From a virus, in the IMG/VR virus record IMGVR_UViG_3300046747_000312, positions 1-29,082 of that record: a stretch of DNA of 29,082 nt; one strand, given 5' to 3'. A program made the translations under genes and the position numbers. Below the pieces are notes generated by a model, which had not been told where the DNA came from, did not search any database, and saw only the letters and a list, made by a program, of their open reading frames with translations. Shown one piece after another: positions 4,602 to 28,688 of this stretch (position 1 is the first letter of the stretch; each line of letters opens with the position of its first letter).

Positions 4602-4999
4602 TTCAGGCGTTCCGGCGCGTCGGTACCTTCGGGGATCGTGCGCTCGACTCGTTCGAGCAGAACGTCGGCACGTTTGCGCGCGGGCTCACCGCGGCCGTAG
4701 CGCAGCGCCTCACGCCGTCCGATTCGCGCGTGAAGGTCAGCTCGACCGCGCAGCACTGGAGCATCCTGCGGTACGACCCTAGCCCTGGCGCCATCGTGCT
4801 CTACCTGCCGCCCCCGGATGACCCTGACTCGGGGGCCATCGCGCTCAAGAACGAGACCACGAGCGCCACGGCGGTGACGGTGCGCTGTCTGCGAGCCGAT
4901 TGCACCATCGATGGCAGCGCAACGCTTTCCGTGTCTGGCTCGAAGGTGTCCGCGGTGTTCCACCCGGATGGCGCGCGGAAGAACTGGATCAAGCTGTGA
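4598..4999 (+). CDS. Small beta-structured virion protein, possible fibre or appendage
   Basis: The GTG at 4598 overlaps the stop of the adaptor gene (GTGA) and is preferred to upstream in-frame starts that lie inside that gene. The product has 133 residues. The first 45 are helical. The rest reads like a fibre-type beta domain: GAIVLYLPPP, then ALKNETTSATAVTVRC, then TIDGSATLSVSGSKVSAVFHPDG and a terminal NWIKL. The sequence 'TIDG-x-ATL ... DG ... W' is a recurrent motif in phage head and tail fibre beta domains. It may decorate the neck or capsid. No specific family can be named. Confidence 0.6.
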   Translation: MIQAFRRVGTFGDRALDSFEQNVGTFARGLTAAVAQRLTPSDSRVKVSSTAQHWSILRYDPSPGAIVLYLPPPDDPDSGAIALKNETTSATAVTVRCLRADCTIDGSATLSVSGSKVSAVFHPDGARKNWIKL

Positions 5000-7900
5000 G
5001 CCAGCCACGCGCATCGACACTCGAGGTGCAGTTCAATCGCGGTCTGCGACAGGACCTAGAAGAGAACCTCATGCCGCCTGGGGCTCTGTCCAAGGCGGAC
5101 GACGTGGAGCTAGACAAGCTCGGGCGTCTGCAGAAGCGCGATTGCTTCGCTGCGCTCGGGACGACGAGTCTTGCGACGGCGGCGGCTGCATTCGTAGGGC
5201 CTGCGAAGCGCTTCGCGGAGGGTCCGAACGGGGAACAGATCGTCTTCACTGACGAGAACGCTCACCTGTACTTTCCAGGCGCCGACAAGATGCGCGAGGC
5301 AGGGCAATGGCACGTGGAATCGCCGATGCGGGCGAACCTCGAAGAGAAGTTCACGATCGGAGCGGACCAGGCCGGGCAGTACGTTGCGGCAGACGCTTGC
5401 GCGCTCGGGAACTGGCTCGTGATTGGCTACGTGCAGCTCGTCGCCACGAACACCTACGAGGTACGTGTAGACGTCATCGACAAGGACACGAAGGCGAAGG
5501 CCATCAGTGGAACCATCAGCGGGATTTTCGTTGGCTCCGCGCCCAACAAGTTCGCTGGAATCCGGGTACTCGCAACGGACGCAGTGACCGCGGCAATCAT
5601 TTGGGCCAACGGGGTCAATATCAGCGCTACGTTCATCACGGCTACCGCCACTTCGGTCTCAACTATTCCGGCCCCGTCCGTGCTCGCGGGAGATTCTGAC
5701 AACGTTCAACCTATCTTTGACGCCGCGGTGACGTCGGTGGGTTTCGTTGTCACCTACCGTAAGCTCGTCGCTGGCAACCATACGGTGATGACCAAGACGT
5801 TTCAGTTCAACGGAGGAGCGCCGTTGGCTACGTTCGACATGCAGCACCTCGGGGCCGCATTCACTGCCACGGCGGTGGCGGTGCTCGGGGCGCGCAATGC
5901 CGGAGAGAAGATTTTCATTCTCGCGGCGAACACGACGAACGGCGCCATCGAGGAGACGTGCACCGCGTTCGACCTCAGCGCCCCGGACCAGGTTGCGGGC
6001 GGCCGAGCCTACGCCACGTGGAGCGGCTATACTGCCGGAGACGTTTGGCAGATGGTGCTTGGGCGTATGGACGCGACGCATGCGGCGTTTCTCTTTTCCA
6101 CGGTGCAGACGTATCTTACCCAAACATGGCCCCCGGCCGGAGCTCTTCCGGAGGGCCCGCGCGGTCCCATCTTCATCTCGAAGCTCAGCGACACGCCGAA
6201 CGTGGGCGGAGCGCTCGCGCAAATCACGAGCCCGTTCGCGAACTACTTCCTGGCCTCGAAGTTCTACACGGACGCGCGTGGTAACATGTACGCATGGGCG
6301 CGCTTCAACGTTCACGACCAGGCGCAATCCCACTATCTACTCCTCGACTTCGAGGGCAACGCGGACCAGGCGTTCTGTCGGCCTACACCGGTCATGCATG
6401 TGGCGAACGGTCTCGTCCAGACCGTCGCGGTGGCGGTGAACGCGCCAGTCCCGCTGTTCGGGTTCGCTGACATTGGCGGCGGCGAATTCCTTTTCGTGGC
6501 CCCGGTGAATCTCGGAGCATCGATCCTCACCGGGCAGCAGATCGGATGCTGGCACGGGCAGACGCTCGGCCCGAAGCGGTTTCTGAGCACGAACGCGCAT
6601 GGGAACCTCTTCGTCGGAGGCGGCACGCCGCTCGCGTACGACGGGCAGCGGTTCGCGGAAATGTCGTTCTACTCGTACCCCGAGGCAAGCACTCCGACGA
6701 TTGCGGGCGTCGGCGCGTTGTCGGCGGGTACGTATCAGTATCGGTTCGTCTATGAGTGGACCGATGCGACCGGCAACAGGCATCAGAGCCCGGCATCTCC
6801 GGCCGTGTCCGTGGTGAACGCCGGTGTGCAGAGTGTCGCTCTGCAGGCAAGCACGATTCACGCGACACGGAAGCAGGTCGAGCCAAACAACACGCTGGGC
6901 GTCGTCCGCGACGACTTCGCGCCGATTCGAGTCGTGGCCTATCGCACGGCGGCGAACGGAACGACGTTCAACCGTCTTAGTTTCGAGATGAAGAATCAGC
7001 TGGGGGATTCCGCAGCGGCGTATCTGTCGCACGTCTCGATCGTGACGATGACGGATATCGAGTCAGACGCGGCAATCGCCGTGAATGAAACGCTCTACGT
7101 GTCCGGCGGAGGTCGCGGCGAGCTGTCGGCGAACTGCCCGCCCCCGTGTCTATTCATGGCGGTTCATGCGGGACGCCTCTGGGGGCTCGACTCGGAAGAC
7201 CCGGAACGCATCTGGTGTACGAAGACCTTCGAGCCAGGGGAGGCCGCGAGCTACAACCCGGGGCTCGAGGTATTCGTCTCCGGATGCGGCCAGGTGAATG
7301 GGCTCGGAGGACAGGATGACAAGCTCTATGGGCTCTGCAGCGGCGGCACCTACGTCGCCAGCTTTGGCCCGGGACCCGACAACACCGGACAGGGATCGTT
7401 TCCCGATCCGGTGCTCATCACGACGGCCGCAGGGTGTGACGATCCGCGCAGCGTTCTGACGTCAACAAACGGGATTTACTTCTCCGGAGCTGGCAGATGG
7501 GGAACGGACATTTTTCTGCTTCGCCGCGGCGATGGCAACCCGGATAGCATCGGTATTCGCTGCCGCGATGAGCTGAGCGTGACGCCGCAGGTACGCGGCG
7601 TTTCGGAGCGCATCGACAAAGGGCGCATCGAGTTCCTGTTTGCAGCCTCGGACGACGGCTCCGGCGCGTCGGCGCTGCTCTACTACCACTACGACCTGGT
7701 AGACGAGCAGAACATCGGGCAATGGACGAAGGCCATTTTTAGCGCGGGGACGGTGCCGATCGAATGCCTCGGTATTTGGGACGGGCTCACGGTGCTCGGC
7801 GTGTCGAGCCTGGTCCCGCAGTTTCCGGTTGTTCGACAGACGGGTCTCGCGATCGTGTCCGGGCATTCGCTTCCGGGTACTGACATCGGGAACCCGATTC

Positions 7901-8559
7901 AGTTTCACGTGATCACCGGGGACATCCGCCCATTTGGAATCGCGGGGTACGGCGATGTTCATTCGCTCACGCTGGTGGGCACGGGCCGCACGCGCGCTGG
8001 CTTCGTCGAAATTTCCGCTTCCTACGATTCGCGTATTAGTTTCCTCGAGTCGATGGGAACGAATACGCCGGAGCTGAACGGGCTCCCCATCATGCGGAAG
8101 TGGGAGACGGCCACGAAGAAGCTGCCGCTCAGTTCCGTGGCCTATAGTTTTCGCGAGAACCTCACCACGGAGGGCGGACAGATCTACACGGACGGCCCCA
8201 TCCTGCACGGATTCTCGCTTGAGACGATGCCGATCGAAGGACCGGCGCGACTTGGCGCCGGGCAACGGGGAAACCAAGCGCCGCTCGTGGTACCGATTGC
8301 AGTGGTCGCCGGGGCACATACGGGAACAGGAGCGACGTTCACCGCGAGTGGCGTGCCAACGGCGTTCGGATCCGGCTCGGCAACCGTGACCGTTGCGGGC
8401 CCACCTGGAACCGGCAAATTCTCCTGGTCGTACCTGGGGCAAACCGGAACTAACCAGGTCCGAGTGGCAGGAGACAACATCATCGGCACCACGGGCGTCT
8501 CCCTTCAGTTCGCCGGGCTATTTGTGCTCGCCGATACCTACGCTTGGAGCGGAGTCTGA
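4996..8559 (+). CDS. Tail nozzle or tail stabilisation protein (P22 gp10-like)
   Basis: The GTG at 4996 overlaps the previous TGA (GTGA) and gives 1187 residues. An upstream ATG in the same frame would lie inside the previous gene. The N-terminus (residues 9-51) has the signature of podovirus tail nozzle proteins: V-Q-F-N-R-G-L, then N-L-M-P-P-G-A-L-x-K-A-D-x-V-E-L-D and G-R-L-Q-K-R. That is the 'GL ... lPPGAL.rA.Nv..d..G.l.rR' pattern seen in P22 gp10 and T7 gp12 relatives. The remainder is beta-rich with many Gly, Thr and aromatic residues, as expected for the beta-propeller and oligomerisation regions. At 1187 residues it is longer than P22 gp10 (roughly 470) and T7 gp12 (roughly 800), so extra host-contact domains are possible. 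Confidence 0.7.
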   Translation: MSQPRASTLEVQFNRGLRQDLEENLMPPGALSKADDVELDKLGRLQKRDCFAALGTTSLATAAAAFVGPAKRFAEGPNGEQIVFTDENAHLYFPGADKMREAGQWHVESPMRANLEEKFTIGADQAGQYVAADACALGNWLVIGYVQLVATNTYEVRVDVIDKDTKAKAISGTISGIFVGSAPNKFAGIRVLATDAVTAAIIWANGVNISATFITATATSVSTIPAPSVLAGDSDNVQPIFDAAVTSVGFVVTYRKLVAGNHTVMTKTFQFNGGAPLATFDMQHLGAAFTATAVAVLGARNAGEKIFILAANTTNGAIEETCTAFDLSAPDQVAGGRAYATWSGYTAGDVWQMVLGRMDATHAAFLFSTVQTYLTQTWPPAGALPEGPRGPIFISKLSDTPNVGGALAQITSPFANYFLASKFYTDARGNMYAWARFNVHDQAQSHYLLLDFEGNADQAFCRPTPVMHVANGLVQTVAVAVNAPVPLFGFADIGGGEFLFVAPVNLGASILTGQQIGCWHGQTLGPKRFLSTNAHGNLFVGGGTPLAYDGQRFAEMSFYSYPEASTPTIAGVGALSAGTYQYRFVYEWTDATGNRHQSPASPAVSVVNAGVQSVALQASTIHATRKQVEPNNTLGVVRDDFAPIRVVAYRTAANGTTFNRLSFEMKNQLGDSAAAYLSHVSIVTMTDIESDAAIAVNETLYVSGGGRGELSANCPPPCLFMAVHAGRLWGLDSEDPERIWCTKTFEPGEAASYNPGLEVFVSGCGQVNGLGGQDDKLYGLCSGGTYVASFGPGPDNTGQGSFPDPVLITTAAGCDDPRSVLTSTNGIYFSGAGRWGTDIFLLRRGDGNPDSIGIRCRDELSVTPQVRGVSERIDKGRIEFLFAASDDGSGASALLYYHYDLVDEQNIGQWTKAIFSAGTVPIECLGIWDGLTVLGVSSLVPQFPVVRQTGLAIVSGHSLPGTDIGNPIQFHVITGDIRPFGIAGYGDVHSLTLVGTGRTRAGFVEISASYDSRISFLESMGTNTPELNGLPIMRKWETATKKLPLSSVAYSFRENLTTEGGQIYTDGPILHGFSLETMPIEGPARLGAGQRGNQAPLVVPIAVVAGAHTGTGATFTASGVPTAFGSGSATVTVAGPPGTGKFSWSYLGQTGTNQVRVAGDNIIGTTGVSLQFAGLFVLADTYAWSGV

Positions 8560-8580
8560 TATAGTCAGGAGAGAATCCCG

Positions 8581-10461
8581 ATGGCCTACAATCCATATCC
8601 AGAGCCCGGCCAGGGGGTCTTCGACCCGGGCGTCGCTCCTACGACGCATGACCTCACGTCTCTGGCGGGACAGGGTCCCGGCGTCCTGGCTCAGATGAAC
8701 CCAGAGGAGCGCGATGCCTACCTCAGGGCACAACAGCAGAACCCAGCGAACGCCGGCGAGGCGTGGTCGGGCAGTGGTGCATATGACGCCTACGCGACGC
8801 CCCTAAAGGCGCAGTTCGCTGGCGATCCGTATTTCACTCAGCGCGTGACCGGCGGCATTCAAGGCGCGCAGCAGGTCGCCACGAACGGCTGGAACGGCGC
8901 GGCGGACATCAACGCCTACCAGCTCGGTGGCGACCCGGCCTACGCCGCGAACGAAGCGGCGCGGCTGCGCGGCACCGGCGCTGCGATGGCGGGTCGTACT
9001 GGTCCGACCATCGATACGGCCAGCGTGTCGCCGTGGCAGGGAGCGCAAACCAGTGCAGGCAATGGGCAGATGCAGGCCGGCGCGGCGCTCGCCGGGCTAG
9101 CGCAGAACGGCGGCGCCGGAACCGGGCTCACGGGACAGGCTGGTGCGGGGCTCATGGGGCTCGCTCGCGCTCCGGCGGGTCCGAGCGCGGCCGAACTCGC
9201 GATGAAAGCGACGGCCGAGCAGGGCCAGCGCAATCAGGCGTCGATGGCCGCGGGCGTGCGTGGCGGGAACTCGGCGCTGGCGCTGCAGAACGCGGCGGCC
9301 AATTCCGCGCAGATGGGCGGCACGCTCAGTCAGCAAATCGGCGTGCAGCGCGCGGCCGAGGACGTTACGAACCGAACTCTTCAGGCGAATGCATTCCAGG
9401 CCGCGGGCAGCATCTACGGATCGCAGGAGCAGCAACGACTTGCGGCGGCAGAGGCGGCCGGAGGGGCATACGGCGGGGCCGGGCAGACGTTCGGGCAGGG
9501 AGCGAGTCTCAATGCCGGTGTCGCTACGAACAACGCGGCGCTCGAGGGGCAGCAGCGCGGACGCAACGATCAGGCGGGACAGTTCTATGAAAGCGCTCAG
9601 CGTCAGGTCACCGCGGATCAGTCGAATCTGAATACAGCATACGACAAACAGCGCACGGCGGATTACATCGCTGCCCGCAACGGATATAGCAATCCAGACA
9701 ACACCGGACGCGGCACCATCACGGGCAGCGCGGGCGGTGACAAGGTTTTGGGGGCAGGCATCGCCGCGGCTGGGGCCATCGCTGCACCGTTTACAGGGGG
9801 CGCATCCTTGGCCGCCGTTCCCGCCGGCGCCGGCATTGCGCAGTCCGATATTCGCGCCAAGACAGACATCGCTCCCGCCGGCCACGCCATCGACCAGACG
9901 TTCCGTGGCCTCGGAGATTATGGGTATGAATACAAGGACCCGCGTGCAGCTGGCGCGGCGCCTGGCCAGCATTTCGGCCCGATGGCGCAAGAGCTGGAGC
10001 AGACGCCGGCAGGCGCGAGCACAGTAACGCGCACGCCGGGCGGCATGAAGGGGATCGATACGGGGCGCCTTGCGCTGGTGAACGCCTCCGAAACGGCGCG
10101 GCTGCGCAAGGAGCTCGACGCGCTCAAGGTGAGCTATGGCGTGGCTCCCGCGATGTACGATCCGGAGAGCGGCATCGAGCAGGCGAACAAGGACGCCTAT
10201 GACATCAAGGACACGCAGACCGTCTATCCGGATACGGGGTACAAGGATCCGCGGTTCGCTGCCATCGACCGCCAGGCGGAGCTCAAGCGGCGCGCGCGCA
10301 TCGAGACGCCGCTCGAGTTCGATCCCGCGGGAGGCGGCACGTTCCGGAGCCCGCTAGAACAGGCGCGTTTCTCCGCGATGGCGCGGCACCCGGGCGGCTA
10401 TGGCTCGCCCGCGGGCCCCGACATGGTCCGGGACTACGCCTATGCATCGAGGGGTCCCTGA
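8581..10461 (+). CDS. Ejection-type virion protein carrying an S74 intramolecular chaperone/autoprotease domain
   Basis: 626 residues, with AGGAGA seven bases before the ATG. Residues 1-420 are Ala/Gly/Gln/Asn-rich and mainly helical (LAMKATAEQGQRNQASMAAG), ending in a Gly/Ala hydrophobic stretch at about 385-420. At residue 422 an S74 domain begins: S422-D423-I-R-A-K427. The Ser followed by Asp, with Lys five positions on, matches the catalytic dyad and cleavage site of endosialidase-type intramolecular chaperones. Further S74 landmarks follow: YGYEYKDPRA, then GPMAQELEQTP and KGIDTGRLALVNA. About 110 residues follow the domain. Autocleavage would release the 204-residue C-terminal part. S74 domains are usual in tail fibres and also occur in podovirus internal proteins; here the neighbours favour the second. 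Confidence 0.7.
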   Translation: MAYNPYPEPGQGVFDPGVAPTTHDLTSLAGQGPGVLAQMNPEERDAYLRAQQQNPANAGEAWSGSGAYDAYATPLKAQFAGDPYFTQRVTGGIQGAQQVATNGWNGAADINAYQLGGDPAYAANEAARLRGTGAAMAGRTGPTIDTASVSPWQGAQTSAGNGQMQAGAALAGLAQNGGAGTGLTGQAGAGLMGLARAPAGPSAAELAMKATAEQGQRNQASMAAGVRGGNSALALQNAAANSAQMGGTLSQQIGVQRAAEDVTNRTLQANAFQAAGSIYGSQEQQRLAAAEAAGGAYGGAGQTFGQGASLNAGVATNNAALEGQQRGRNDQAGQFYESAQRQVTADQSNLNTAYDKQRTADYIAARNGYSNPDNTGRGTITGSAGGDKVLGAGIAAAGAIAAPFTGGASLAAVPAGAGIAQSDIRAKTDIAPAGHAIDQTFRGLGDYGYEYKDPRAAGAAPGQHFGPMAQELEQTPAGASTVTRTPGGMKGIDTGRLALVNASETARLRKELDALKVSYGVAPAMYDPESGIEQANKDAYDIKDTQTVYPDTGYKDPRFAAIDRQAELKRRARIETPLEFDPAGGGTFRSPLEQARFSAMARHPGGYGSPAGPDMVRDYAYASRGP

Positions 10462-12224
10462 TGGCGCTAGTCGGCTACGAGCCGGCGCCGAACGGTGGGT
10501 ACCTTTTCCACCGTGACAACGGGCCGTCGATGATGTTCGCCGGACCCGAGGCGGAGGCGATGCGGCAGCATATCGACCTCACTCGGCCGCCGGACGCGCG
10601 GACGGCGAGCGTCGACCCGTCCAGCATCATGGCGGGCAGCGGCGACCCCGGTCTATCGCCAATGGGCCCGCTGGCTCCCCCGGTTAGCGTGCCGGATGCG
10701 TCCGGAGGCATGAGCCTCCCATCGGGCGGGGCGATGAGCGCGGCGCCCCCTGCCGAACCGAGGCCGCAGGCTCTCAGTCAGTCCCTGCCGCCGCAAGCGC
10801 CTCGCTCCCCTCCCAAGCCGACTGAGCCGCCCCCCATGAAGATGGGCCCGGCCGAACCCGGCACCGAGCCGGGGGGCAAAGAAGAGACCCGCGGCGCCGC
10901 GGCTGAGCTGGCCTATGCGCTTGCTTCGCAGGCTCCGCGCGGCGGCGGTGGCAAGGCGGCGAAGATGGGCCTGTCTGAGCGCACCGTGGAGGGCGCAGCG
11001 AGCCCGGAGGACCAGGCGGCGAATCGCGAGCTGGTGCAGGAGACGCGCGCGGCGGGGGAAGCGACGCTCACGCGGCTCGCGTCGATCGAGGAGCAGAAAA
11101 AGGCGTACTACGAGGACGCGCAGGCGAATGCGGCCGACGCGGCGCTCGAGGCGCACGCGCGCCAGCTCCGCGCGCAAGACCAGGCGGCCACGGTCCAGGC
11201 GGCATGGGACAAGACGCACGCATCGCTACAGCGCGAACAGGACGCGGTGGCGAATCAAAAGGTGGACCCGAATCGGCTTTTCAGCGGAAGGGCCGGCACC
11301 GGGGCGGCAATCGCCTCGACCATCAGTGTAGCGCTCGGGGCGTTCGGGGCGTCACTGACCGGAGGCCCGAATTATGCATTGCAGATCGTGAACTCAGCGA
11401 TTCAGCGCGACGTGGACGCGCAAATGGATTCGCTGCAGCGCCGCGGGGCGAACGCGGACAACGCCATGTCCAACTTCATGCGCGCGCACGGACTCGAGCC
11501 GCAAGAGGCGAAGCTTGCGGTAACCGCCTACGGGCAGCAGTACGCGGCGAAGCTCGCGGAGACGCAAGCGACACAGATCAAGAGCCTGGAATCTCAGCAA
11601 GCGGCGGAGCAGTTCGCCGCGGAGATGCGCGCCAAGGCCGCGGCGAATCTCGCGGATCTGCAGTCCAAGGTGATGGCGAAGGCGACCGAGAAATACAAGC
11701 TACAGGGCGGCGGGGGCGGCCCGGCGGCAGCGAAGCAGCAGCTCGAAAACCTGAAGCTCGCGGCGGAGGTTGACGCGCTCGAGACCAAGACGTCGGGCTC
11801 GAAGAAGAGCAGCCCGGAAGGCGAAGTCACACCGCGACTGGCGACGAGCGAGGCCGCAACGACAGCAGCGGGCCCCGGGCTCGCGCATCTCAAGCGCCTC
11901 TCGGACAACGCCAGTAGCATCGGTCAGGTGCTCGACTATTTCGGCATCGGTGGCAAATCCGCGCTCACGTCCGCCGCGGAGAATCAGGCCTATCTTGACG
12001 CTCGCGCCGAGACGGGCGGGAACGTTCCGCCGGAGCATCGAGTCGAGCAGATCCGGAAGAACCTTTCTTCCCCGGTCAAGGCCACGCGCGACGCTCAGAT
12101 CGAGGAACTCTATGCGGCCAAGGCCGCGCTCCACAACTCGAACGTGGACGTATCGAAACGGACCGCGAAGGTCGGCGCAATCGGCGGCAGCGAAGGCCCC
12201 GTTGACTCCTCGGGGGCCTACTAA
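10461..12224 (+). CDS. Putative internal virion (DNA ejection) protein
   Basis: The ATG overlaps the previous TGA by one base (TGATG). 587 residues. Residues 1-45 are beta-like, 50-145 are Pro/Gly-rich and disordered, and 150-270 are Ala/Glu/Arg/Gln-rich with strong coiled-coil character. A single uncharged stretch at 277-308 (GTGAAIASTISVALGAFGAS) could cross a membrane, and another long helical region follows to about 420. One hydrophobic helix within a very helical Ala/Gln-rich protein is how podovirus ejection proteins look (P22 gp7/gp20/gp16, T7 gp14-16). There is no enzymatic motif. It should leave the virion at infection and help build the trans-envelope channel. Confidence 0.6.
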   Translation: MALVGYEPAPNGGYLFHRDNGPSMMFAGPEAEAMRQHIDLTRPPDARTASVDPSSIMAGSGDPGLSPMGPLAPPVSVPDASGGMSLPSGGAMSAAPPAEPRPQALSQSLPPQAPRSPPKPTEPPPMKMGPAEPGTEPGGKEETRGAAAELAYALASQAPRGGGGKAAKMGLSERTVEGAASPEDQAANRELVQETRAAGEATLTRLASIEEQKKAYYEDAQANAADAALEAHARQLRAQDQAATVQAAWDKTHASLQREQDAVANQKVDPNRLFSGRAGTGAAIASTISVALGAFGASLTGGPNYALQIVNSAIQRDVDAQMDSLQRRGANADNAMSNFMRAHGLEPQEAKLAVTAYGQQYAAKLAETQATQIKSLESQQAAEQFAAEMRAKAAANLADLQSKVMAKATEKYKLQGGGGGPAAAKQQLENLKLAAEVDALETKTSGSKKSSPEGEVTPRLATSEAATTAAGPGLAHLKRLSDNASSIGQVLDYFGIGGKSALTSAAENQAYLDARAETGGNVPPEHRVEQIRKNLSSPVKATRDAQIEELYAAKAALHNSNVDVSKRTAKVGAIGGSEGPVDSSGAY

Positions 12225-14824
12225 TGGCCGGCATGGTCAAGGCCCCGAATGGCGCCGTCGTCTTCCAGGACGACGCGGGCCAGGTGCACCTCAAGAACGC
12301 CAGCGGGGAAATCCAGCCGGTCAAGCCCGCGGACGTCGCGCATCTGCTCGGTGACCCGCTCTCCGGCTACTCCCCCGCCTCTGCGGTGGACATCTCCAAC
12401 GCCGCGGCCGAAGCGAAGGCCGCCGCGGACGCAGAGAAAACCTCCGTGCTCGGCGCTGGCGCTCGCGGATTCGCCACGGGCGCCGTCAACGCCGCGCTTG
12501 CTGCGCCGAAGCTCGTCACCGGCCTGGGTGCCGCGGCGCTCGGCGTCAAGGACCCCCTGGCCGACTATTCCGGCTCCGGCTTCGTCCAGGACGTCGGCAC
12601 GGCGGCGCGGCACGTCGCGGGCGAAGGAATCGGCGCGGCCGAGGACGCGTCCCACGAACAGATGCTCGCGGACCGCGAGCTACACCCCTACGCGCGCGGC
12701 GCCGGGGAGCTCGCCGGGACCGTGGCCGGAGCGCTCCCGCTCGGTGGCGTCGCGGCCGGCGCGGGACGGGCCGGCGCTGCCGCCCTCGGGCTCGCTGGGC
12801 GCGCCGCAACCGTGGGCGCGGGCCTGGGCGCCTCGGTGCTCGAAGGCGCCTCCCTGGGGTCCACGCAGGCCGCAGAGGCCGCCTGGCTCAAGGGGGACCA
12901 TGACGTGACGGCCGAGCAGACGCTTGCCGGTATCGGGCTCGGCGGGCTGTTCGGGCTCGGCGCGGGGACCGTGGTAGCCGGCGGCGCGGCGGGGCTGTCC
13001 AAGCTCCTCGGGCGACGGGCGGCCACGGAGGGCGCTGCCAGCCTGGAGAGCGCGGCGGCGCGGGCCGAGGCGGGCGATGCGGCGGCAGCGTCCGAGGGCT
13101 CGGTGCTGAGCGATGCGGAGCCGGCGCGGACGGCGCCCCTCGATGCCGTCTCCGGGGGACAGCAGTCCCGAGCGCGGCAGTGGTTCTCGGGCGTTTCGGA
13201 CGAAGCGGCCGTGAAGCAGATATTTCACGATCAAAAACCCGCGTTACGATCGCTCGGCGGAGGGAAGGCGCCGTCGCCGGAGCTTCTCTCGGATTTCGGG
13301 AAATTCGCCAACGAGTCAGGTATTGCCGGATTCAAGTCGGATTCTGCGGCCCTGGGGCGCGCTACCGAGGTATCGGAGGGCGCCGGCCAGCGGATCGGCG
13401 CCATCATGGAGAAGCTCGACGCCACGGCGCCCTACGTCGAGGCGCGCCCCCTCGTGGCCAAGCTGCAGGACTTCGCGGGCAACCTCCGGCGCGAATCCTG
13501 GACGCCGGAGCAAGATGCGATTGCGAAGAAGATCGCGGAGCGGACCGTGAAGATTCAGGAGCTTGCGGACGCCGGAATCGTTACGCATTCCGACCTGTGG
13601 AACTACCGCCGCGGGCTCGATACGCTGTCCGGCTGGGGCAAGACCGCACCGAATGCCACCAAAGAAGCGATGCGCGAGCTCCGCGGCATGGTCGAGACGC
13701 AACTCGAGCAATCCGTGGCGCAGGGAGGAGGAGCCGACCTCGGCACCGAGTACCTGCAGGCCAAGCGCGCCTACCGCTTCGGGACGGCGGCGAAAGAGGC
13801 GCTCGAGGAACGCGTGGGCGTCCGCGACATTTCCAACAACCTCTTCGGCCTGAAGGATTCCGCCGTAGGCCTCGCGACGCTCCTCGGCACCGGTGGCCAT
13901 GCGTTCCCGGCACTCGCCGCCGCGGGCGGAGCGAAGTTCGTCCGCGAACGCGGCTGGGGTGCGCTTGCGTCGATCGCTCGCAAGGCCGCAGGCGATGCGG
14001 TGGACCTATCCGCCGCGCCCGCCGCGGCGCTCGGCACGGCGCGGAACGTCCAGACGATGGTGGCTCACTCCGAGTCCCGACTCCAGTCCTCGCTTGGGCG
14101 CTTCCTGGGCGTCGGGGACGACGGCGGCGGCCTCGCGCGGCGCGGCGCGGTCTCGTGGGCTGCGCGGCTCCGCTCCGACGATGCGGACTCGGCGCGCTCG
14201 GCCTACAAGGAGCAGGCGACCGAGGTACAATCGCTCGCGGGGAACCCGATGCTCGCGTCGCAGCGGTTGAACGGCATCACGGGCGATGGGCTCATCGCGG
14301 TCGCTCCGGGACTCCAGACGGCCATGGCGAGAGTCGCGGGCCGCGCGTCGCAATACCTCGCGGCGAATCTGCCGTGTCCGCCGTCTGACCCGAACAGTAT
14401 CACGCCGCAGCTCGACTCGCCGCCGCCGGCCAGCATGTCGGACCTTGCGACCTACGCGGACCGCGTGGAGGGCGTGGAGGATCCGCTCTCCCTCGTAGAC
14501 GACCTCCACACGGGAATCGTCTCGCCCGAGAAGGTCGATGCGGTGAAGCACGTTTGGCCGCAGATTTTCGCGCGGATTCAGCAATCGACGATGCTCGCGC
14601 TCTCGCAAGCCACGGAGCCGGTGCCTTACGAAAAGCGAAAGCTGCTCGATATCGCGCTCGATGCGCACGGCACGATTGAGCCGTCGATGCGGCCCGAGAA
14701 CATCGACGTCATGCGGCAGGCGCTCAAATCGGTTCAGGTGGCCCAGAAGCCGCAGAACGGACGCGCTCCGCAAGCGGCATCGATGCTCGCAACCAGGTCA
14801 CAGCAGCTCATGAAAGGGAATTGA
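12224..14824 (+). CDS. Large Ala/Gly-rich ejection-type virion protein
   Basis: 866 residues. The start overlaps the previous stop by one base (TAATG). The N-terminal 40 residues repeat a beta-like pattern similar in style to the start of the preceding protein (APNGAVVFQDDAGQVHLKN). Residues 76-108 and 158-262 are long Gly/Ala-rich hydrophobic segments (GELAGTVAGALPLGGVAAGA; TLAGIGLGGLFGLGAGTVVA) that look like membrane-interacting helices. The C-terminal two thirds are helical and charged. I see no lysozyme or transglycosylase motif. Size, composition and order place it with podovirus DNA-transfer proteins that insert into the host envelope. Confidence 0.6.
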   Translation: MAGMVKAPNGAVVFQDDAGQVHLKNASGEIQPVKPADVAHLLGDPLSGYSPASAVDISNAAAEAKAAADAEKTSVLGAGARGFATGAVNAALAAPKLVTGLGAAALGVKDPLADYSGSGFVQDVGTAARHVAGEGIGAAEDASHEQMLADRELHPYARGAGELAGTVAGALPLGGVAAGAGRAGAAALGLAGRAATVGAGLGASVLEGASLGSTQAAEAAWLKGDHDVTAEQTLAGIGLGGLFGLGAGTVVAGGAAGLSKLLGRRAATEGAASLESAAARAEAGDAAAASEGSVLSDAEPARTAPLDAVSGGQQSRARQWFSGVSDEAAVKQIFHDQKPALRSLGGGKAPSPELLSDFGKFANESGIAGFKSDSAALGRATEVSEGAGQRIGAIMEKLDATAPYVEARPLVAKLQDFAGNLRRESWTPEQDAIAKKIAERTVKIQELADAGIVTHSDLWNYRRGLDTLSGWGKTAPNATKEAMRELRGMVETQLEQSVAQGGGADLGTEYLQAKRAYRFGTAAKEALEERVGVRDISNNLFGLKDSAVGLATLLGTGGHAFPALAAAGGAKFVRERGWGALASIARKAAGDAVDLSAAPAAALGTARNVQTMVAHSESRLQSSLGRFLGVGDDGGGLARRGAVSWAARLRSDDADSARSAYKEQATEVQSLAGNPMLASQRLNGITGDGLIAVAPGLQTAMARVAGRASQYLAANLPCPPSDPNSITPQLDSPPPASMSDLATYADRVEGVEDPLSLVDDLHTGIVSPEKVDAVKHVWPQIFARIQQSTMLALSQATEPVPYEKRKLLDIALDAHGTIEPSMRPENIDVMRQALKSVQVAQKPQNGRAPQAASMLATRSQQLMKGN

Positions 14825-15980: not shown

Positions 15981-16309
15981 CCAAGATTCTTCTCTCGCGC
16001 GCAGACTGCGACAAGGTCAACGCTTGCGTCCCTCCGACCGCTGGTGTCCCAGTCGGAGGCGGAATCCACATCGACATTCCAGCCGACTGGCAGGCGCGCA
16101 TCGCCGCAGGCATCCCGGTGCCCGGCTGCACGTACGTTCTGCCGGACGCGGACGGCGCCGTGACGATCGCGCCCGAGCTAACGGCAAAGCTCCAGGCCTC
16201 GCCGGACCCGCGCGCAGCTCAAGTGCTCGCGGTGATTGCAGTTGCGGTGCCGATTCCGGATCCCGTGCTCAATGCGCAGGTCGACGCGCAAGCGGAGATC
16301 AAGCCATGA
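15977..16309 (+). CDS. Hypothetical protein downstream of the appendage gene
   Basis: 110 residues from an ATG overlapping the previous stop by four bases (ATGA). Two Cys residues occur near the start (ADCDKVNACVPP) and one in GCTYVLPDADG. The middle is a short beta segment (GGGIHIDIPADWQARI) and the C-terminal half is Ala/Pro/Val-rich. No family recognised. Upstream in-frame codons would run inside the LamG-like gene and are disregarded. Function is unknown; it is co-translated with the appendage gene and may accompany it in the virion. Confidence 0.6.
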   Translation: MTKILLSRADCDKVNACVPPTAGVPVGGGIHIDIPADWQARIAAGIPVPGCTYVLPDADGAVTIAPELTAKLQASPDPRAAQVLAVIAVAVPIPDPVLNAQVDAQAEIKP

Positions 16310-17953: not shown

Positions 17954-17990
17954 TACCCGAGCCGCATCACGTTGCACCTCCCTGCACGCG
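17954..17990 (+). repeat. Left flanking copy of an imperfect direct repeat around the 12-bp array
   Basis: This stretch aligns with 18170-18199 as TACC(C)GAG, CGC, TCACGTT, then CCCTGC and CGCG, with one extra C and a six-base insertion (gcacct) on the left side and three substitutions. It runs into the first array unit at 17985. Intergenic, just after the last late gene. Role unknown. Confidence 0.5.
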
Positions 17991-18170
17991 GCCGTGCACG
18001 CGGACGCTCACGCGGACGTGCATGCGGTCGTGCACGCGGCCGTACACGCGGCCGTCCACGCGGACGCCCACGCGGACGCCCACGCGGCCGTACACGCGGT
18101 CGCCCACGCGGACGTACACGCGGCCGTCCACGCGGCCGTACACGCGGCCGTACACGCGGCCGTACACGCT
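17985..18170 (+). repeat. 12-bp tandem repeat array, 15.5 units
   Basis: Fifteen complete 12-base units and a 6-base remnant follow without spacer. The consensus is CACGCGGNCGYN; the most frequent unit is CACGCGGCCGTA. The CACGCGG core is invariant except for one CATGCGG (18021). Variation falls at positions 8, 11 and 12. Because the unit is a multiple of three, both strands stay open in several frames and give tetrapeptide-repeat ORFs, but the variable positions are not silent in either the HAAV or the YGRV frame, so selection appears to act on DNA rather than protein. It lies between the end of the rightward late block (17935) and the end of the leftward early operon (stop at 18169-18171). 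It may be an origin, a packaging or recombination site, or a transcription buffer. Confidence 0.9.
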
Positions 18171-19061: not shown

Positions 19062-19288
19062 TTGAGCTCCTCGAAAAGTTCGGTCTGATTCTTCGCTTCG
19101 TCCGTGTGCTTCAGCAACTCGATGAGCGATTCCCGGTCCTTCGGGCCGAGCTTCGCCACGCATTGCACGATGCGGCCCCGGTCGCTGGCGCGCAGCTCCG
19201 CCAGCGCTTGCTTTTCCCTCGCGGCCTGAGTCCCGAGGATCGCCCGTACCTTGTCGAGCGCCTGTCCTACGGTCAGAACGCGGCTCAT
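19058..19288 (-). CDS. Small helical hypothetical protein between exonuclease and MazG genes
   Basis: 76 residues; start overlaps the stop of the exonuclease-annealase gene and its stop overlaps the MazG ATG, so it is coupled on both sides. It is helical and charged (ALDKVRAILGTQAAREKQAL, then ESLIELLKHTDEAKNQTELF) with one Cys and no recognisable motif. It may be a structural partner of one of its neighbours. Function unknown. Confidence 0.65.
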   Translation of the reverse strand: MSRVLTVGQALDKVRAILGTQAAREKQALAELRASDRGRIVQCVAKLGPKDRESLIELLKHTDEAKNQTELFEELK

Positions 19289-20730
19289 TCTCCCGCCTCC
19301 GCCCCGAGCTCTTCGAGCGCGTACAACCCGAGCGCGGCACCCGGATACACGATGCGGCCGAGCTGCACCGCGCAGGTCTTCCGCAGCATTTCGTCCGGTC
19401 GTTTGTGCCAGTTTCCGGGCTCCTTCCCCGGCTTCGTCGCCAGCAGCCCGGCGCGCTCCGCCTGCTCGATGGTGTAGCGCAACTTGACCGGAGTCTCGTT
19501 CCCGCGCTGCTTCGTGTGGTACTCGGCAAAGGTGTTATCCCCCGCGATGTAGCGGAACCACTCGCAGTCCGGGTGCCGCGTCACCATCTCCGTGATGAGA
19601 TGCGCATGGAGCGCAGTCTTGCCGTCGAAATAGTGGATCACGTCGAGCGCCTGAATCGCGCCAAGCCCGATCGAGCGACCCCGCACGATGACCACGAGCG
19701 CGGCGTCCGGGTTCGAGATGCGCGGGTATAGCCGCGAATTCGCCACGGCAATCGCGAACGTCTGCGCCGATGCGAGCGTGCGCGGCTCCAGGGCCTGCGC
19801 CCATTCGACCGGCGCAAGCGCGAGCGCCGTGGACTTCGGCGCCTGCATGACGGGAGTCGCGACGGGCGCCTCCGCGCTCGGCTCGCTCTTCGGGGGCGGC
19901 AGAGAAATCGGATCGAATTCGCCGTCTTGAATCGCTGGTGTTGCTTCGCTCACTGGCTTTACCTCTCTCTTTTCGAACAGTTCTTCCCACCGGATCGGGC
20001 AGTCGCGCCGAAGCTCGATCACCTGTTTCGCGAGCCGCGCGGCCGCGGCACCCTGAAACACGTTCTCTTGCATCTTCGGTGTCGGAATCTTGTCGCAGTT
20101 GCCGAGCACTGCGTCCAGCGTGCCGCCGTACTCGGTAAGCAGCTTCGCGGCGTTCTTCTTACCCACTCCCGGGATGCCCGGAACGTTGTCCGAGGTATCA
20201 CCTTGGAGCGCCAGGGCGTCGAGTAGCATCTCGGGCGGCACGCCCCAGGTTTCGATAACGCCCGCACGATCGAAGGTCTTCTGTTTCGACGGCGAGAAAA
20301 CGCGAATGTCGTTCTCATCGTCCACGAGCTGGAGCAAATCCTTGTCCGAGCTCGCGATCGTAACGCTCATCCCGTCGCGCTTGGCGAACTCCACGGCCGT
20401 CGCGATGACGTCGTCGGCCTCCTCACCCGGCACGGACCAGAGGAGGTGTCCATCTGCGACCAGACGCTCCTTGACGCGGCGGAACTGGTCGAGCGCCGCC
20501 GCGGGCGGCGCATCACGCTGCGCCTTGTACGTGGGCAGCAGGGCCTTGCGGCGGGTGTAGGGCGAGGCGTCGCAGCAGATCGCAACGTGGTCGTACTCGT
20601 CGCACCGGAGGGCTCCGGGGGAAGCGACGGCAATCGCATATGCCTCGCCTCCGGTCGGGAGCGCTACGGTGGCGTGCCATGCGGCCCAGAAAATGCCGGA
20701 AATGTCGATTAATAGCAATGATTTTGACAT
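19285..20730 (-). CDS. Fused FEN-type 5'-3' exonuclease and RecT-like annealing protein
   Basis: 481 residues; GAGGAA precedes the ATG. Residues 1-about 240 match the 5' nuclease domain of DNA polymerase I: D9 in LLLIDISGIFWAAWHA, D54, the Arg/Lys/Tyr arch residues (RRKALLPTYKAQR, 60-72), E103/E104/D106/D107 in PGEEADD, D129 and D131 in SSDKDLLQLV, GDTSDN (D178, D181) and the H3TH loop GIPGVGKKNAAKLL (185-198). A Pro/Ala-rich linker (about 255-305) follows. Residues about 310-481 look like a RecT-family annealase: a GLGAIQALDVIHYFDGKTAL strand, then W-F-R-Y, a T-x-E-Q-A-x-R-A-G-L segment, W-H-K-R-P-x-E-M-L-R, and YPGAALGLYALEELG at the end, which is the conserved C-terminal half of phage RecT-like proteins. 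Together it would resect 5' ends and anneal the exposed strand. Confidence 0.8.
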   Translation of the reverse strand: MSKSLLLIDISGIFWAAWHATVALPTGGEAYAIAVASPGALRCDEYDHVAICCDASPYTRRKALLPTYKAQRDAPPAAALDQFRRVKERLVADGHLLWSVPGEEADDVIATAVEFAKRDGMSVTIASSDKDLLQLVDDENDIRVFSPSKQKTFDRAGVIETWGVPPEMLLDALALQGDTSDNVPGIPGVGKKNAAKLLTEYGGTLDAVLGNCDKIPTPKMQENVFQGAAAARLAKQVIELRRDCPIRWEELFEKREVKPVSEATPAIQDGEFDPISLPPPKSEPSAEAPVATPVMQAPKSTALALAPVEWAQALEPRTLASAQTFAIAVANSRLYPRISNPDAALVVIVRGRSIGLGAIQALDVIHYFDGKTALHAHLITEMVTRHPDCEWFRYIAGDNTFAEYHTKQRGNETPVKLRYTIEQAERAGLLATKPGKEPGNWHKRPDEMLRKTCAVQLGRIVYPGAALGLYALEELGAEAGE

Positions 20731-20736
20731 GGTTCC

Positions 20737-20907
20737 TCAGGAGTGGTTGCCAGCGAAACGAGCCCGATCCGCAATCGGAGAACCGAGCGAAATCCAGACA
20801 CGCGAGGTCAATTCAGACGTCACGCGCTGACCGACCCAAAAACCGACCACATTGGCGACGTACAAGGTCGACGCCTGGTATCTGACGGGGTCCCGCAGTC
20901 GTTTCAC
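20737..20907 (-). CDS. Possible 56-residue coupled ORF between repressor and exonuclease
   Basis: A GTG overlaps the repressor stop by four bases (GTGA), the same arrangement as most real junctions here, and the frame ends six bases before the exonuclease ATG. It fills the only sizeable gap in the operon. The product begins MKRLRDPVRYQASTLYVANV and has a hydrophobic middle and a basic/polar end. No family is recognised. The same frame stays open upstream through the repressor gene, which weakens the case a little. Confidence 0.4.
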   Translation of the reverse strand: MKRLRDPVRYQASTLYVANVVGFWVGQRVTSELTSRVWISLGSPIADRARFAGNHS

Positions 20908-21110
20908 GCCGCGCCGCCGATCAGTCCGAGCGCAGTCGGCAACCCGGGGGCGAGCGCCGCCATGGCCACGACCTGCGACGCGCCGGGCTCGCCCTTGCCG
21001 TTCTCCCAGTTCTCCACTGTCTGCCGGCTTACCTTGGCGGCCACGGCCACCTGCTCCGGCTTGAGACCGTGTCGGACTCGCCATTCCCTGAGCGCGGCTC
21101 CCTTTGCCAT
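20904..21110 (-). CDS. XRE (Cro/CI-type) helix-turn-helix repressor
   Basis: 68 residues. Helix-turn-helix at about residues 19-38: P-E-Q-V-A-V-A-A-K-V-S-R-Q-T-V-E-N-W-E-N-G-K, with the recognition helix S28-N37, the usual XRE pattern (Q at the start of helix 2, S/T at the turn, W-E-x-G after the recognition helix). The C-terminus is a short Ala/Gly/Leu stretch with no dimerisation or protease domain, so it is Cro-sized rather than CI-sized. It is the first gene of the leftward operon and its ATG is part of the inverted repeat at 21108-21201, so it most likely regulates its own promoter and the divergent one. Confidence 0.85.
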   Translation of the reverse strand: MAKGAALREWRVRHGLKPEQVAVAAKVSRQTVENWENGKGEPGASQVVAMAALAPGLPTALGLIGGAA

Positions 21111-21116
21111 CCCCAG

Positions 21117-21145
21117 ACGATAGCGGCACCGAAACGGTTTTGCAA
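21117..21145 (-). promoter_or_regulatory. Leftward sigma-70-like promoter for the repressor operon, apparently leaderless
   Basis: On the minus strand TTGCAA (21145-21140) and TATCGT (21122-21117) are separated by exactly 17 bases. Six bases (CTGGGG) then lead to the repressor ATG, so the expected transcription start falls on or next to the A of the start codon. No spaced Shine-Dalgarno is available in such a transcript. Both hexamers are imperfect (4 of 6 each), which fits a regulated promoter. Confidence 0.6.
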
Positions 21146-21165
21146 GATTCTTTGGAAAGATTCTT
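21144..21165. promoter_or_regulatory. Operator-like dyad overlapping both -35 elements
   Basis: Two copies of the 9-base palindrome AAGATTCTT (21144-21152 and 21157-21165), 13 bases centre to centre, together form a 22-base dyad, symmetric apart from the centre base of each half and the central GG. Each half-site runs into one of the two -35 hexamers, so binding would block both promoters. The likely ligand is the XRE protein encoded next to it. Confidence 0.6.
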
Positions 21166-21192
21166 GACTGGCTACGCGATGGCCGCTATCGT
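21164..21192 (+). promoter_or_regulatory. Rightward sigma-70-like promoter for the replication block, apparently leaderless
   Basis: TTGACT (21164-21169), 17-base spacer, TATCGT (21187-21192), then CTGGGG and the ATG at 21199. The predicted start of transcription coincides with the start codon. The -35 matches five of six consensus positions as TTGAC-T, better than the leftward promoter, so the rightward direction may be the stronger one when unrepressed. Confidence 0.65.
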
Positions 21193-21198
21193 CTGGGG

Positions 21199-21360
21199 AT
21201 GAAGCAACGCGCCAAGTTCGAGATTTGGGCCAGCCTGGACCGTTTTGCGAACGGTCTCCGGTGGTTGTCGACGATCCAGACGGGCCGCTCCGATCTTGAC
21301 GTCTCAATCGCGGTTTTCCCGCTCAGCAACGCCGCCAACCAATTTGGTGGCGCAGCGTGA
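21199..21360 (+). CDS. 53-residue early protein, first gene of the rightward operon
   Basis: The ATG is the right end of the inverted repeat and would be the first codon of a leaderless mRNA. The product starts MKQRAKFEIWASLDRFANGL and continues with a mixed hydrophobic segment and an Asn/Gly end; it contains two Trp and is basic at the start. No family recognised. Its stop is overlapped by the next GTG (GTGA). First genes behind early phage promoters are often host-takeover or anti-defence proteins, but nothing in the sequence shows which. Confidence 0.6.
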   Translation: MKQRAKFEIWASLDRFANGLRWLSTIQTGRSDLDVSIAVFPLSNAANQFGGAA

Positions 21361-21536
21361 CCGACCCGGTAACCGTTCTCCTGGCCCAGTTCACCAGTGT
21401 GCTCCAGGCACTCTCCTTGGCCCGCGCGCTGGAAGACAACTACAATGATCGCGCATGTCGCCGTATCGACGTGTCGAACGCGCGACAGCGGCATTATGAG
21501 ATGATGTGGCGGCGACCGACGCGGGTGGCAGCGTGA
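21357..21536 (+). CDS. 59-residue early hypothetical protein
   Basis: Starts at a GTG overlapping the previous stop (GTGA) and ends at a TGA overlapped by the next GTG. The N-terminal half is hydrophobic-helical (VTVLLAQFTSVLQALSLARA) and the C-terminal half basic with aromatic residues (RQRHYEMMWRRPTRVAA). No membrane-type continuous hydrophobic run. Function unknown; position within the early operon and coupling on both sides are the evidence that it is translated. Confidence 0.55.
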   Translation: MTDPVTVLLAQFTSVLQALSLARALEDNYNDRACRRIDVSNARQRHYEMMWRRPTRVAA

Positions 21537-27351: not shown

Positions 27352-28655
27352 GCGCAGCACGCGAGCCCGGGGACGACCGAGAAGAGCCACCGACGAACGT
27401 CGTCGAGCTTGAGCCATGGAAACGCGGCCTCGTCTACGGACGCGATGACAAGAACGGAGAGCCACGGCTCACGGCCTGCGTCGGAAACGTTGCGCTGATT
27501 CTCACGCACGACGTCGCGTTCCGCGGATGCTTCGCCTTCAACGACCTTTCTAGGAAGACGCTCCTCGTCAAGAAGCTCCCGAAGATGGTCGGCTTCGCAT
27601 CACCCAAGCGCGGCCCGGTCGATACCTACATTCGCGACGTCACGATCGCGGCGCTCGCGAGCATGAACAAGCTCACCGCGAGCAAGGATCTGGTATCTGA
27701 CGGCATAGAACTCGCCGCGCGTCAACAGCGTTTCAATCCCATGCGCGACCATCTCGAGGGCCTGAAGTGGGACGGAGTGCGACGTCTGGATCGGTGGCTG
27801 AGCACATATCTGGGTGTCAGCGCAACAGAATATGCTGCCTCCGTGGGCGCGTGGTGGCTCATCTCGATGGTCGCGCGCATCTACGAGCCCGGCTGTCAAG
27901 CGGACCACGTACTCGTGCTCGAGGGGCCGCAGGGCGCCGCGAAGTCGAGCGCGCTCCGGGTACTTGCGGGCGCGGACTATTTCACCGACCAGCTCCCGGA
28001 CCTCGGCTCGAAGGACTGCCAACAGCAACTCCTTGGCATGACGTGCATCGAACTCGGCGAAATGGACGCGCTCTCCCGCCACGAGGTCACGCGGATCAAG
28101 GCGTTCCTCACCGTCCGCTCGGACCGCTACCGGCCGCCATTCGAACGCTACGTCGTCGACATTCCACGAACGTGCGTCTTCGCCGGCAGCACGAACAAGC
28201 CCGGATACCTCCGCGACGACACCGGCAACCGCCGCTTCTGGCCCGTCCGCGTCGGAGCCATCGACCTGGACGCGCTCCGTCGCGACCGAGACCAGCTCCT
28301 AGCCGAGGCCCGGTGCGCCTACGAAAGCGGCGCCCACTGGTGGCCGGACCCGAAGTCCGTGGAGCTGGCGGCGGCCATCGAGGACGAGCAGGACCAGCGC
28401 TACATCGGCGACGAGTGGGAAGCGAAGATCGCCGCGTGGCTCGAGGGCCACGGAACCGGGCTGCCGTGCGACCCTCGCGATGCCGTCACGGTGGGCGATA
28501 TCCTCGCCGGTCTGGGCATCGCTCCCGAGGACTGGAGCCTCCAGGCCCAGCAGCGTATCGGCGCCGTCATGGGGCGCCTAGGGTGGGTCTGCGGGCGGTC
28601 CCGGGAGCACGGGGTCAGAGTTCGACGGTATCGGCGACCGAATTCTGGCCCGTAA
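27348..28655 (+). CDS. VirE/VapE-family P-loop ATPase (replication, primase-helicase type)
   Basis: 435 residues from the ATG overlapping the previous stop. Family marks: F-N-P-M-R-D-H-L-E-G-L-K-W-D-G-V-R-R-L-D (about 126-145), Y-x-x-S-V-G-A-W-W-L-I-S-M-V-A-R-I-Y-E-P-G, D-H-V-L-V-L-E-G-P-Q-G-A-A-K-S-S with Walker A at 193-200, L-G-S-K-D, Walker B-like C-I-E-L-G-E238-M-D, R-I-K-A-F-L-T-V-R-S-D-R-Y-R, C-V-F-A-G-S-T-N, and T-G-N-R-R-F-W-P-V. This is the PF05272-type core. Family members act as phage or satellite replication helicases/primases. The N-terminal 115 residues lack a full archaeo-eukaryotic primase motif, so a separate primase may be needed. The stop codon lies inside the terminator stem. 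Confidence 0.85.
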   Translation: MSAAREPGDDREEPPTNVVELEPWKRGLVYGRDDKNGEPRLTACVGNVALILTHDVAFRGCFAFNDLSRKTLLVKKLPKMVGFASPKRGPVDTYIRDVTIAALASMNKLTASKDLVSDGIELAARQQRFNPMRDHLEGLKWDGVRRLDRWLSTYLGVSATEYAASVGAWWLISMVARIYEPGCQADHVLVLEGPQGAAKSSALRVLAGADYFTDQLPDLGSKDCQQQLLGMTCIELGEMDALSRHEVTRIKAFLTVRSDRYRPPFERYVVDIPRTCVFAGSTNKPGYLRDDTGNRRFWPVRVGAIDLDALRRDRDQLLAEARCAYESGAHWWPDPKSVELAAAIEDEQDQRYIGDEWEAKIAAWLEGHGTGLPCDPRDAVTVGDILAGLGIAPEDWSLQAQQRIGAVMGRLGWVCGRSREHGVRVRRYRRPNSGP

Positions 28656-28688
28656 CAAAAAGCATGCTTTTGTTACGGGCCGTTTTTT
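28647..28688 (+). terminator. Intrinsic terminator closing the rightward replication block
   Basis: A perfect 14-base inverted repeat (GGCCCGTAACAAAA at 28647-28660, complement at 28668-28681) with a 7-base loop (AGCATGC) is followed by G and six T. The left arm contains the stop codon of the ATPase gene. The reverse strand has the same stem but no T run after it, so it acts mainly rightward. Confidence 0.9.

What the first reader, a model, noticed from the sequence alone, without database searches (positions are those of the whole stretch)
21108..21201. Mirror-image divergent promoters with leaderless start codons and concentric dyads
The whole region is symmetric about 21154/21155. Outer arms are 20-bp perfect inverted repeats that contain the -10 hexamer TATCGT and end in the ATG of each divergent gene. 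Inside are -35 elements (TTGCAA leftward, TTGACT rightward), each exactly 17 bases from its -10, and an inner 22-base operator-like dyad that touches both. The predicted start sites lie on the start codons, so both mRNAs should be leaderless. A bidirectional switch in which promoter, operator and start codon form one palindrome is unusual.
Basis: partly seen in the sequence, partly recalled or inferred. Interest (0 to 1): 0.75.

Follow-up and report, generated by a model that had tools for sequence, protein, structure and literature searches.

The report
Mirror-symmetric divergent leaderless phage switch
Between two back-to-back early gene sets, an uncultured phage carries two predicted promoters that fire outward from one central operator-like site and end in identical 20-letter stretches that include each gene's start codon; the layout works like known phage repressor switches, but the identical ends are unusual and unexplained.

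Summary
A perfect 20-bp inverted repeat (21108-21127/21182-21201) ends exactly in the ATGs of two divergent genes: a 68-aa XRE protein leftward and a 53-aa orphan ORF rightward. Both sides have a -35/17 bp/-10 TATCGT/6 bp/ATG layout, the only credible leaderless-type promoters in the phage's known 38.6 kb, and the two genes have the weakest Shine-Dalgarno signals of about 40 called. The centre holds an imperfect 24-bp dyad, equally readable as two AAGATTCTT sites 13 bp apart, overlapping both -35s. The spacers are unrelated, so this is not one uniformly ageing inverted duplication. Each promoter heads a packed early operon: exonuclease-RecT and MazG leftward, helicase and VapE primase rightward. 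Best reading: an autoregulatory XRE switch blocking both -35s at once, both first genes translated from leaderless mRNA. Doubly leaderless divergent phage switches are known (PY54, mapped; Cluster O mycobacteriophages, predicted). The perfect arms are the unusual part; PY54 lacks them. The only relative found is near-identical, so conservation could not be tested and the arms' function is unproven.

The parts
21108..21127 (-). left arm of the 20-bp perfect inverted repeat: -10 region, 6-bp discriminator CTGGGG and ATG of the XRE gene
   Evidence: unique in the phage
21182..21201 (+). right arm of the 20-bp perfect inverted repeat: same elements for the rightward 53-aa ORF
21117..21122 (-). -10 hexamer TATCGT, leftward promoter
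21187..21192 (+). -10 hexamer TATCGT, rightward promoter
21140..21145 (-). -35 hexamer TTGCAA (4/6), leftward promoter, 17-bp spacer
21164..21169 (+). -35 hexamer TTGACT (5/6), rightward promoter, 17-bp spacer
21143..21166 (.). central imperfect dyad CAAGATTCTTTGGAAAGATTCTTG; putative XRE operator overlapping both -35s
   Evidence: single occurrence in the phage; binding is inferred
21144..21152 (.). AAGATTCTT copy 1 (near-palindrome)
21157..21165 (.). AAGATTCTT copy 2, 13 bp from copy 1
20904..21110 (-). 68-aa XRE-family HTH protein, first gene of the leftward operon; no Shine-Dalgarno
   Evidence: HTH_3 6.8e-10, HTH_31 4e-11; PHROG transcriptional repressors; SD energy +0.7
21199..21360 (+). 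53-aa orphan ORF, first gene of the rightward operon; no Shine-Dalgarno; GTGA overlap with the next ORF
   Evidence: no family match
20737..20907 (-). 56-aa ORF starting at a GTG that overlaps the XRE stop (GTGA)
19285..20730 (-). 5'-3' exonuclease with a C-terminal RecT-like domain, leftward operon
21357..21536 (+). 59-aa ORF coupled to the 53-aa ORF by a GTGA overlap

Best explanation
It is the divergent early-promoter region of an uncultured tailed phage, run as a single-operator autoregulatory switch. Two sigma-70-type promoters face outward, with predicted start sites 89 bp apart on the A of each ATG, so both first genes are made from leaderless mRNA. The XRE protein, product of the leftward first gene, binds the central dyad, which touches both -35 hexamers and lies where the two polymerase footprints would meet. 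It would thus shut off (or at a lower dose bias) both operons together, including its own gene. The identical arms give both promoters the same -10, discriminator and start, so any difference in strength comes only from the -35s and spacers; rightward should be the stronger. Shown: the DNA anatomy, its uniqueness, the lack of Shine-Dalgarno signals, the HTH family and the gene layout. Inferred: start sites, XRE binding, repression, and selection as the reason for the identical arms.
For: Exact elements and spacing. These two are the only leaderless-type sites with -10 and -35 both at least 4/6 and an ORF over 35 aa in the phage's 38.6 kb. In about 1.0 Mb of fetched, mostly viral DNA there were 52 such single sites and only this divergent pair plus its identical copy. 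Weakest SD energies of all called genes: +0.7 and -1.5 kcal/mol against -2.5 to -10.3. Both ATGs are the furthest-upstream starts possible in frame, and the HTH match of XRE begins at residue 4-7, so its start is firm. XRE gene adjacent, dyad present once. Experimental precedent for a doubly leaderless divergent phage switch in PY54.
Against: No transcript or binding data. -10 TATCGT is only 4/6 and the left -35 only 4/6. No diverged relative exists to test conservation. The 53-aa ORF has no homologue. The HTH family alone does not say what DNA is bound. Sigma-70 hexamers are assumed for an unknown host.
Confidence: 0.66

Rival explanations
1. The arms are a second, separate regulatory site: a protein (phage or host) binds the 17-bp sequence GCCGCTATCGTCTGGGG over each -10 and start, giving two-layer control (XRE at the centre, another factor at the arms).
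For: 20/20 identity extends beyond what a sigma factor or a leaderless start would need, while the adjacent spacers share almost nothing.
Against: No third copy anywhere in the phage, none in the same arrangement in the viral collection (the two other hits lie inside a virion-protein gene), and no candidate second regulator nearby.
Confidence: 0.15
2. The arms are identical because of a recent local inverted copying event (template switch or conversion between the two promoter ends), not because the sequence is selected as a whole.
For: A short perfect patch beside unrelated spacers is what local copying leaves; the two first genes also share most of their last 15 nt (13/15).
Against: The patch ends exactly at both ATGs; wider gene-to-gene DNA similarity is not above shuffles (local p 0.17).
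Confidence: 0.14
3. The inverted repeat is an invertible element or a transposon end pair.
For: 20-bp perfect arms flanking a short segment.
Against: No Phage_integrase or Resolvase family match in either record; the sister contig has the same orientation; inversion would still leave a promoter facing each way.
Confidence: 0.02
4. The palindrome acts in RNA as a long hairpin (100 nt folds at -55.4 kcal/mol, z -8.5).
For: Strong predicted fold.
Against: The strength follows from the arms by construction; neither operon's sense transcript crosses the region if starts are where predicted; no T-run for termination.
Confidence: 0.03

Closest known systems
PY54 cI/cro immunity region (telomere phage; PMC4488713)
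   Same: Divergent phage regulator genes, both with leaderless mRNA starting at AUG (RACE), operator in between
   Different: Start codons about 105 bp apart; the flanks share only CATA/TATG, no long identical arms; both genes there are regulators and the phage is temperate
Cluster O mycobacteriophage PL1/PR2 (PMC4351075)
   Same: Divergent intergenic promoters, both predicted leaderless with +1 on the first base of the start codon
Lambda OR region (PRM/PR)
   Same: Divergent promoters in a gap of about 100 bp with operators between; cI mRNA is leaderless (cited in PMC4488713)
   Different: Three operators; cro mRNA has a leader and no mirror arms are described (own knowledge); full-length CI repressor
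C-protein controlled restriction-modification systems (AhdI, EcoRV; PMC5333194)
   Same: Small autoregulating controller protein acting at an operator beside its own promoter; AhdI C mRNA leaderless; EcoRV promoters divergent and overlapping
   Different: No restriction or methyltransferase genes here; EcoRV C mRNA is not leaderless
Bidirectional promoters sharing a symmetric -10 (PMC12825309)
   Same: Sequence symmetry giving divergent transcription
   Different: There one shared -10 serves both strands; here two complete back-to-back promoters with predicted starts 89 bp apart

Membership tests
XRE / HTH_3 family regulator | HTH_3 domain above the Pfam cut-off | tested here: met
   39.3 bits against a cut-off of 23; HTH_31 43.5 against 27
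Divergent leaderless phage switch (PY54 type) | regulator gene divergent from an early operon with an operator between | tested here: met
   the operator rests on sequence symmetry only
Divergent leaderless phage switch (PY54 type) | transcription starts on both AUGs | not testable with these tools
   predicted from -10 position and missing SD; needs 5'-end mapping
Divergent leaderless phage switch (PY54 type) | regulator binds between the promoters | not testable with these tools
   needs a footprint or gel shift
CI/Cro lysogeny switch | two opposing repressors | tested here: not met
   only one side encodes an HTH protein; the 53-aa ORF has no family match
CI/Cro lysogeny switch | temperate phage with integration machinery | tested here: inconclusive
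   no Phage_integrase or Resolvase match in either record, but both records may be incomplete
C-protein R-M control | linked restriction and methyltransferase genes | tested here: not met
   the neighbours with family matches are exonuclease-RecT, MazG, helicase, VapE
Invertible promoter | cognate recombinase | tested here: not met

The most novel reading that the evidence does not exclude
The arms are dual-purpose elements: the same 17-20 bp is -10, discriminator, start codon and the binding site of a second factor, so one sequence, held identical on both sides, keeps two early operons in lockstep while the central XRE site switches them.
Probability: 0.13. Interest if true: 0.6.

Novelty: new variant of a known kind. 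Interest (0 to 1): 0.36.

Why it matters
If the layout works as predicted it is a very compact switch: one small repressor, one operator, two promoters and two leaderless starts within 94 bp. It would be a clean model for asking how two back-to-back polymerases share one operator and how two leaderless starts are balanced. As a kind of system it joins known phage switches.

Tried and rejected
Relatives by XRE, exonuclease-RecT, VapE primase and terminase in IMG/VR: only the near-identical contig 3300046780_000604 (and a 7-kb terminase fragment) are close. A terminase alignment reached 46 loci, but the 29 records searched lack the exonuclease and have no close XRE (an empty answer in fragments is weak). 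Bacterial genome collection: no relative. INPHARED: no DNA match, only generic HTH, exonuclease or VapE matches, no terminase or capsid match. Pattern TATCGTCTGGGGATG: most other hits lie inside one conserved coding sequence (photosystem-like, from memory) and none has a partner arm. The two further hits of the core-arm pattern lie within a virion-type gene: chance. A third AAGATTCTT at 15983 lies in coding sequence just after a start codon: probably chance. XRE and the 53-aa ORF as inverted gene duplicates: not supported. L040's XRE relative sits in an ordinary SD-led repressor locus without mirror arms. Corndog record not held.

Full report
Observation. The two arms are a perfect 20-bp inverted repeat separated by 54 nt. 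Aligning the 94 bp with its own reverse complement gives 62 matches: 20 in each arm and 20 in the central 24 bp, with one match in each 15-bp spacer. It is the longest perfect inverted repeat with arms less than 300 nt apart in the window. Markov simulations gave at most one perfect pair of 14 bp, so 20 bp ending on two start codons is far beyond chance.

Promoters. Both sides carry -35, 17 bp, TATCGT, 6 bp, ATG. A scan for a -10 of at least 4/6 placed 5-8 bp from a start, with a -35 of at least 4/6, found three sites in the window plus the further 9.5 kb of the sister contig: these two, and one that leads into a 14-codon frame. A stricter scan of about 1.0 Mb of fetched loci found 52 single sites and no other divergent pair apart from the identical copy. 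That set overlaps in part and is not random, so the figure is only a guide; PY54's own doubly leaderless pair was not picked up by these strict rules.

Leaderless starts. I called genes by codon usage and scored pairing to the 16S tail. The XRE gene (+0.7 kcal/mol) and the 53-aa ORF (-1.5) are the weakest of about 40; the rest lie between -2.5 and -10.3. Starts of the other genes were chosen partly by this score, which favours them somewhat. The GGGG directly before ATG is too close to serve as a Shine-Dalgarno (established knowledge). Neither frame has an earlier possible start. With the usual -10 to start distance both transcripts begin on the A of ATG. This is prediction, not proof.

The regulator and its site. 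The leftward first gene encodes a 68-aa HTH_3 protein, related by profile to phage repressors and more weakly to DicA, RstR and HipB-like proteins. The centre, CAAGATTCTTTGGAAAGATTCTTG, can be read as one 24-bp dyad or as two direct AAGATTCTT copies 13 bp apart. It occurs once in the phage and overlaps both -35s by 3 bp. With polymerase footprints reaching to about -55, two polymerases would meet over this same stretch (inference). A protein bound there should block both promoters.

Operons. Leftward: XRE, then a 56-aa ORF beginning at a GTG overlapping the XRE stop, then a 5'-3' exonuclease with a C-terminal RecT-like domain, a 76-aa ORF and a MazG-type pyrophosphatase. Rightward: the 53-aa ORF, a 59-aa ORF also starting at a GTGA overlap, further small ORFs, a DUF6745 protein, a helicase and a VapE-type primase-helicase. 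So the switch heads two replication and recombination gene sets, not an obvious CI/Cro pair. No integrase or resolvase was found in either record, though both may be incomplete.

Relatives. The only close relative is IMGVR_UViG_3300046780_000604 (38,572 bp), with one difference in over 11 kb compared and none in the 5.3 kb around the switch. It speaks against an assembly accident but says nothing about conservation. Distant terminase relatives do not visibly share this module.

What it is. The best-supported reading is a single-operator, autoregulatory divergent switch with two leaderless first genes. The unrelated spacers argue against one inverted duplication ageing uniformly. They leave two ideas for the identical arms: selection for the whole 17-20 bp, or recent local copying. 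I cannot separate these without a diverged relative.

Known systems. PY54 cI and cro are divergent and both leaderless, shown by RACE (PMC4488713); its intergenic region has no long mirror arms. Cluster O mycobacteriophages have divergent promoters both predicted leaderless (PMC4351075). AhdI C protein is made from a leaderless mRNA and EcoRV has divergent overlapping promoters (PMC5333194). Symmetric bidirectional promoters share one -10 (PMC12825309) and are a different arrangement. So the working principle is known; the mirror arms are a variant.

Limits. No host is known, sigma-70 rules are assumed, and every functional step (start sites, binding, repression) is inferred.

Noticed in passing
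19285-20730 (-): One 481-aa protein carries an N-terminal 5'-3' exonuclease (PF02739/PF01367) and a C-terminal RecT-like annealing domain (PF03837, 26.9 bits over a cut-off of 24): an apparent exonuclease-annealase fusion.
   Followed up: partly
20904-20918 and 21346-21360: The two divergent first genes end alike (GGCGGCGCGGCGTGA / GGTGGCGCAGCGTGA, 13/15), each with a GTGA overlap to the next ORF; wider DNA similarity of the genes is not significant.
   Followed up: yes
28647-28681: 14-bp perfect stem with A and T tracts (GGCCCGTAACAAAA/TTTTGTTACGGGCC) at the end of the VapE gene, between it and a possible convergent leftward ORF: likely bidirectional terminator.
   Followed up: no
17983-18169: Tandem repeats with 12-bp register, seen as many off-diagonal self matches.
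   Followed up: no
L046 1-780 and L047 6900-7573 (ends of the sister contig): Both ends of the 38.6-kb sister contig consist of long GC-rich short-period repeats, which may mark the genome ends or an assembly limit.
   Followed up: no
4900-14824: The four large ORFs here (1219, 626, 587 and 866 aa) have no PHROG match; with a terminase unmatched in INPHARED this points to a deeply divergent phage lineage.
   Followed up: partly
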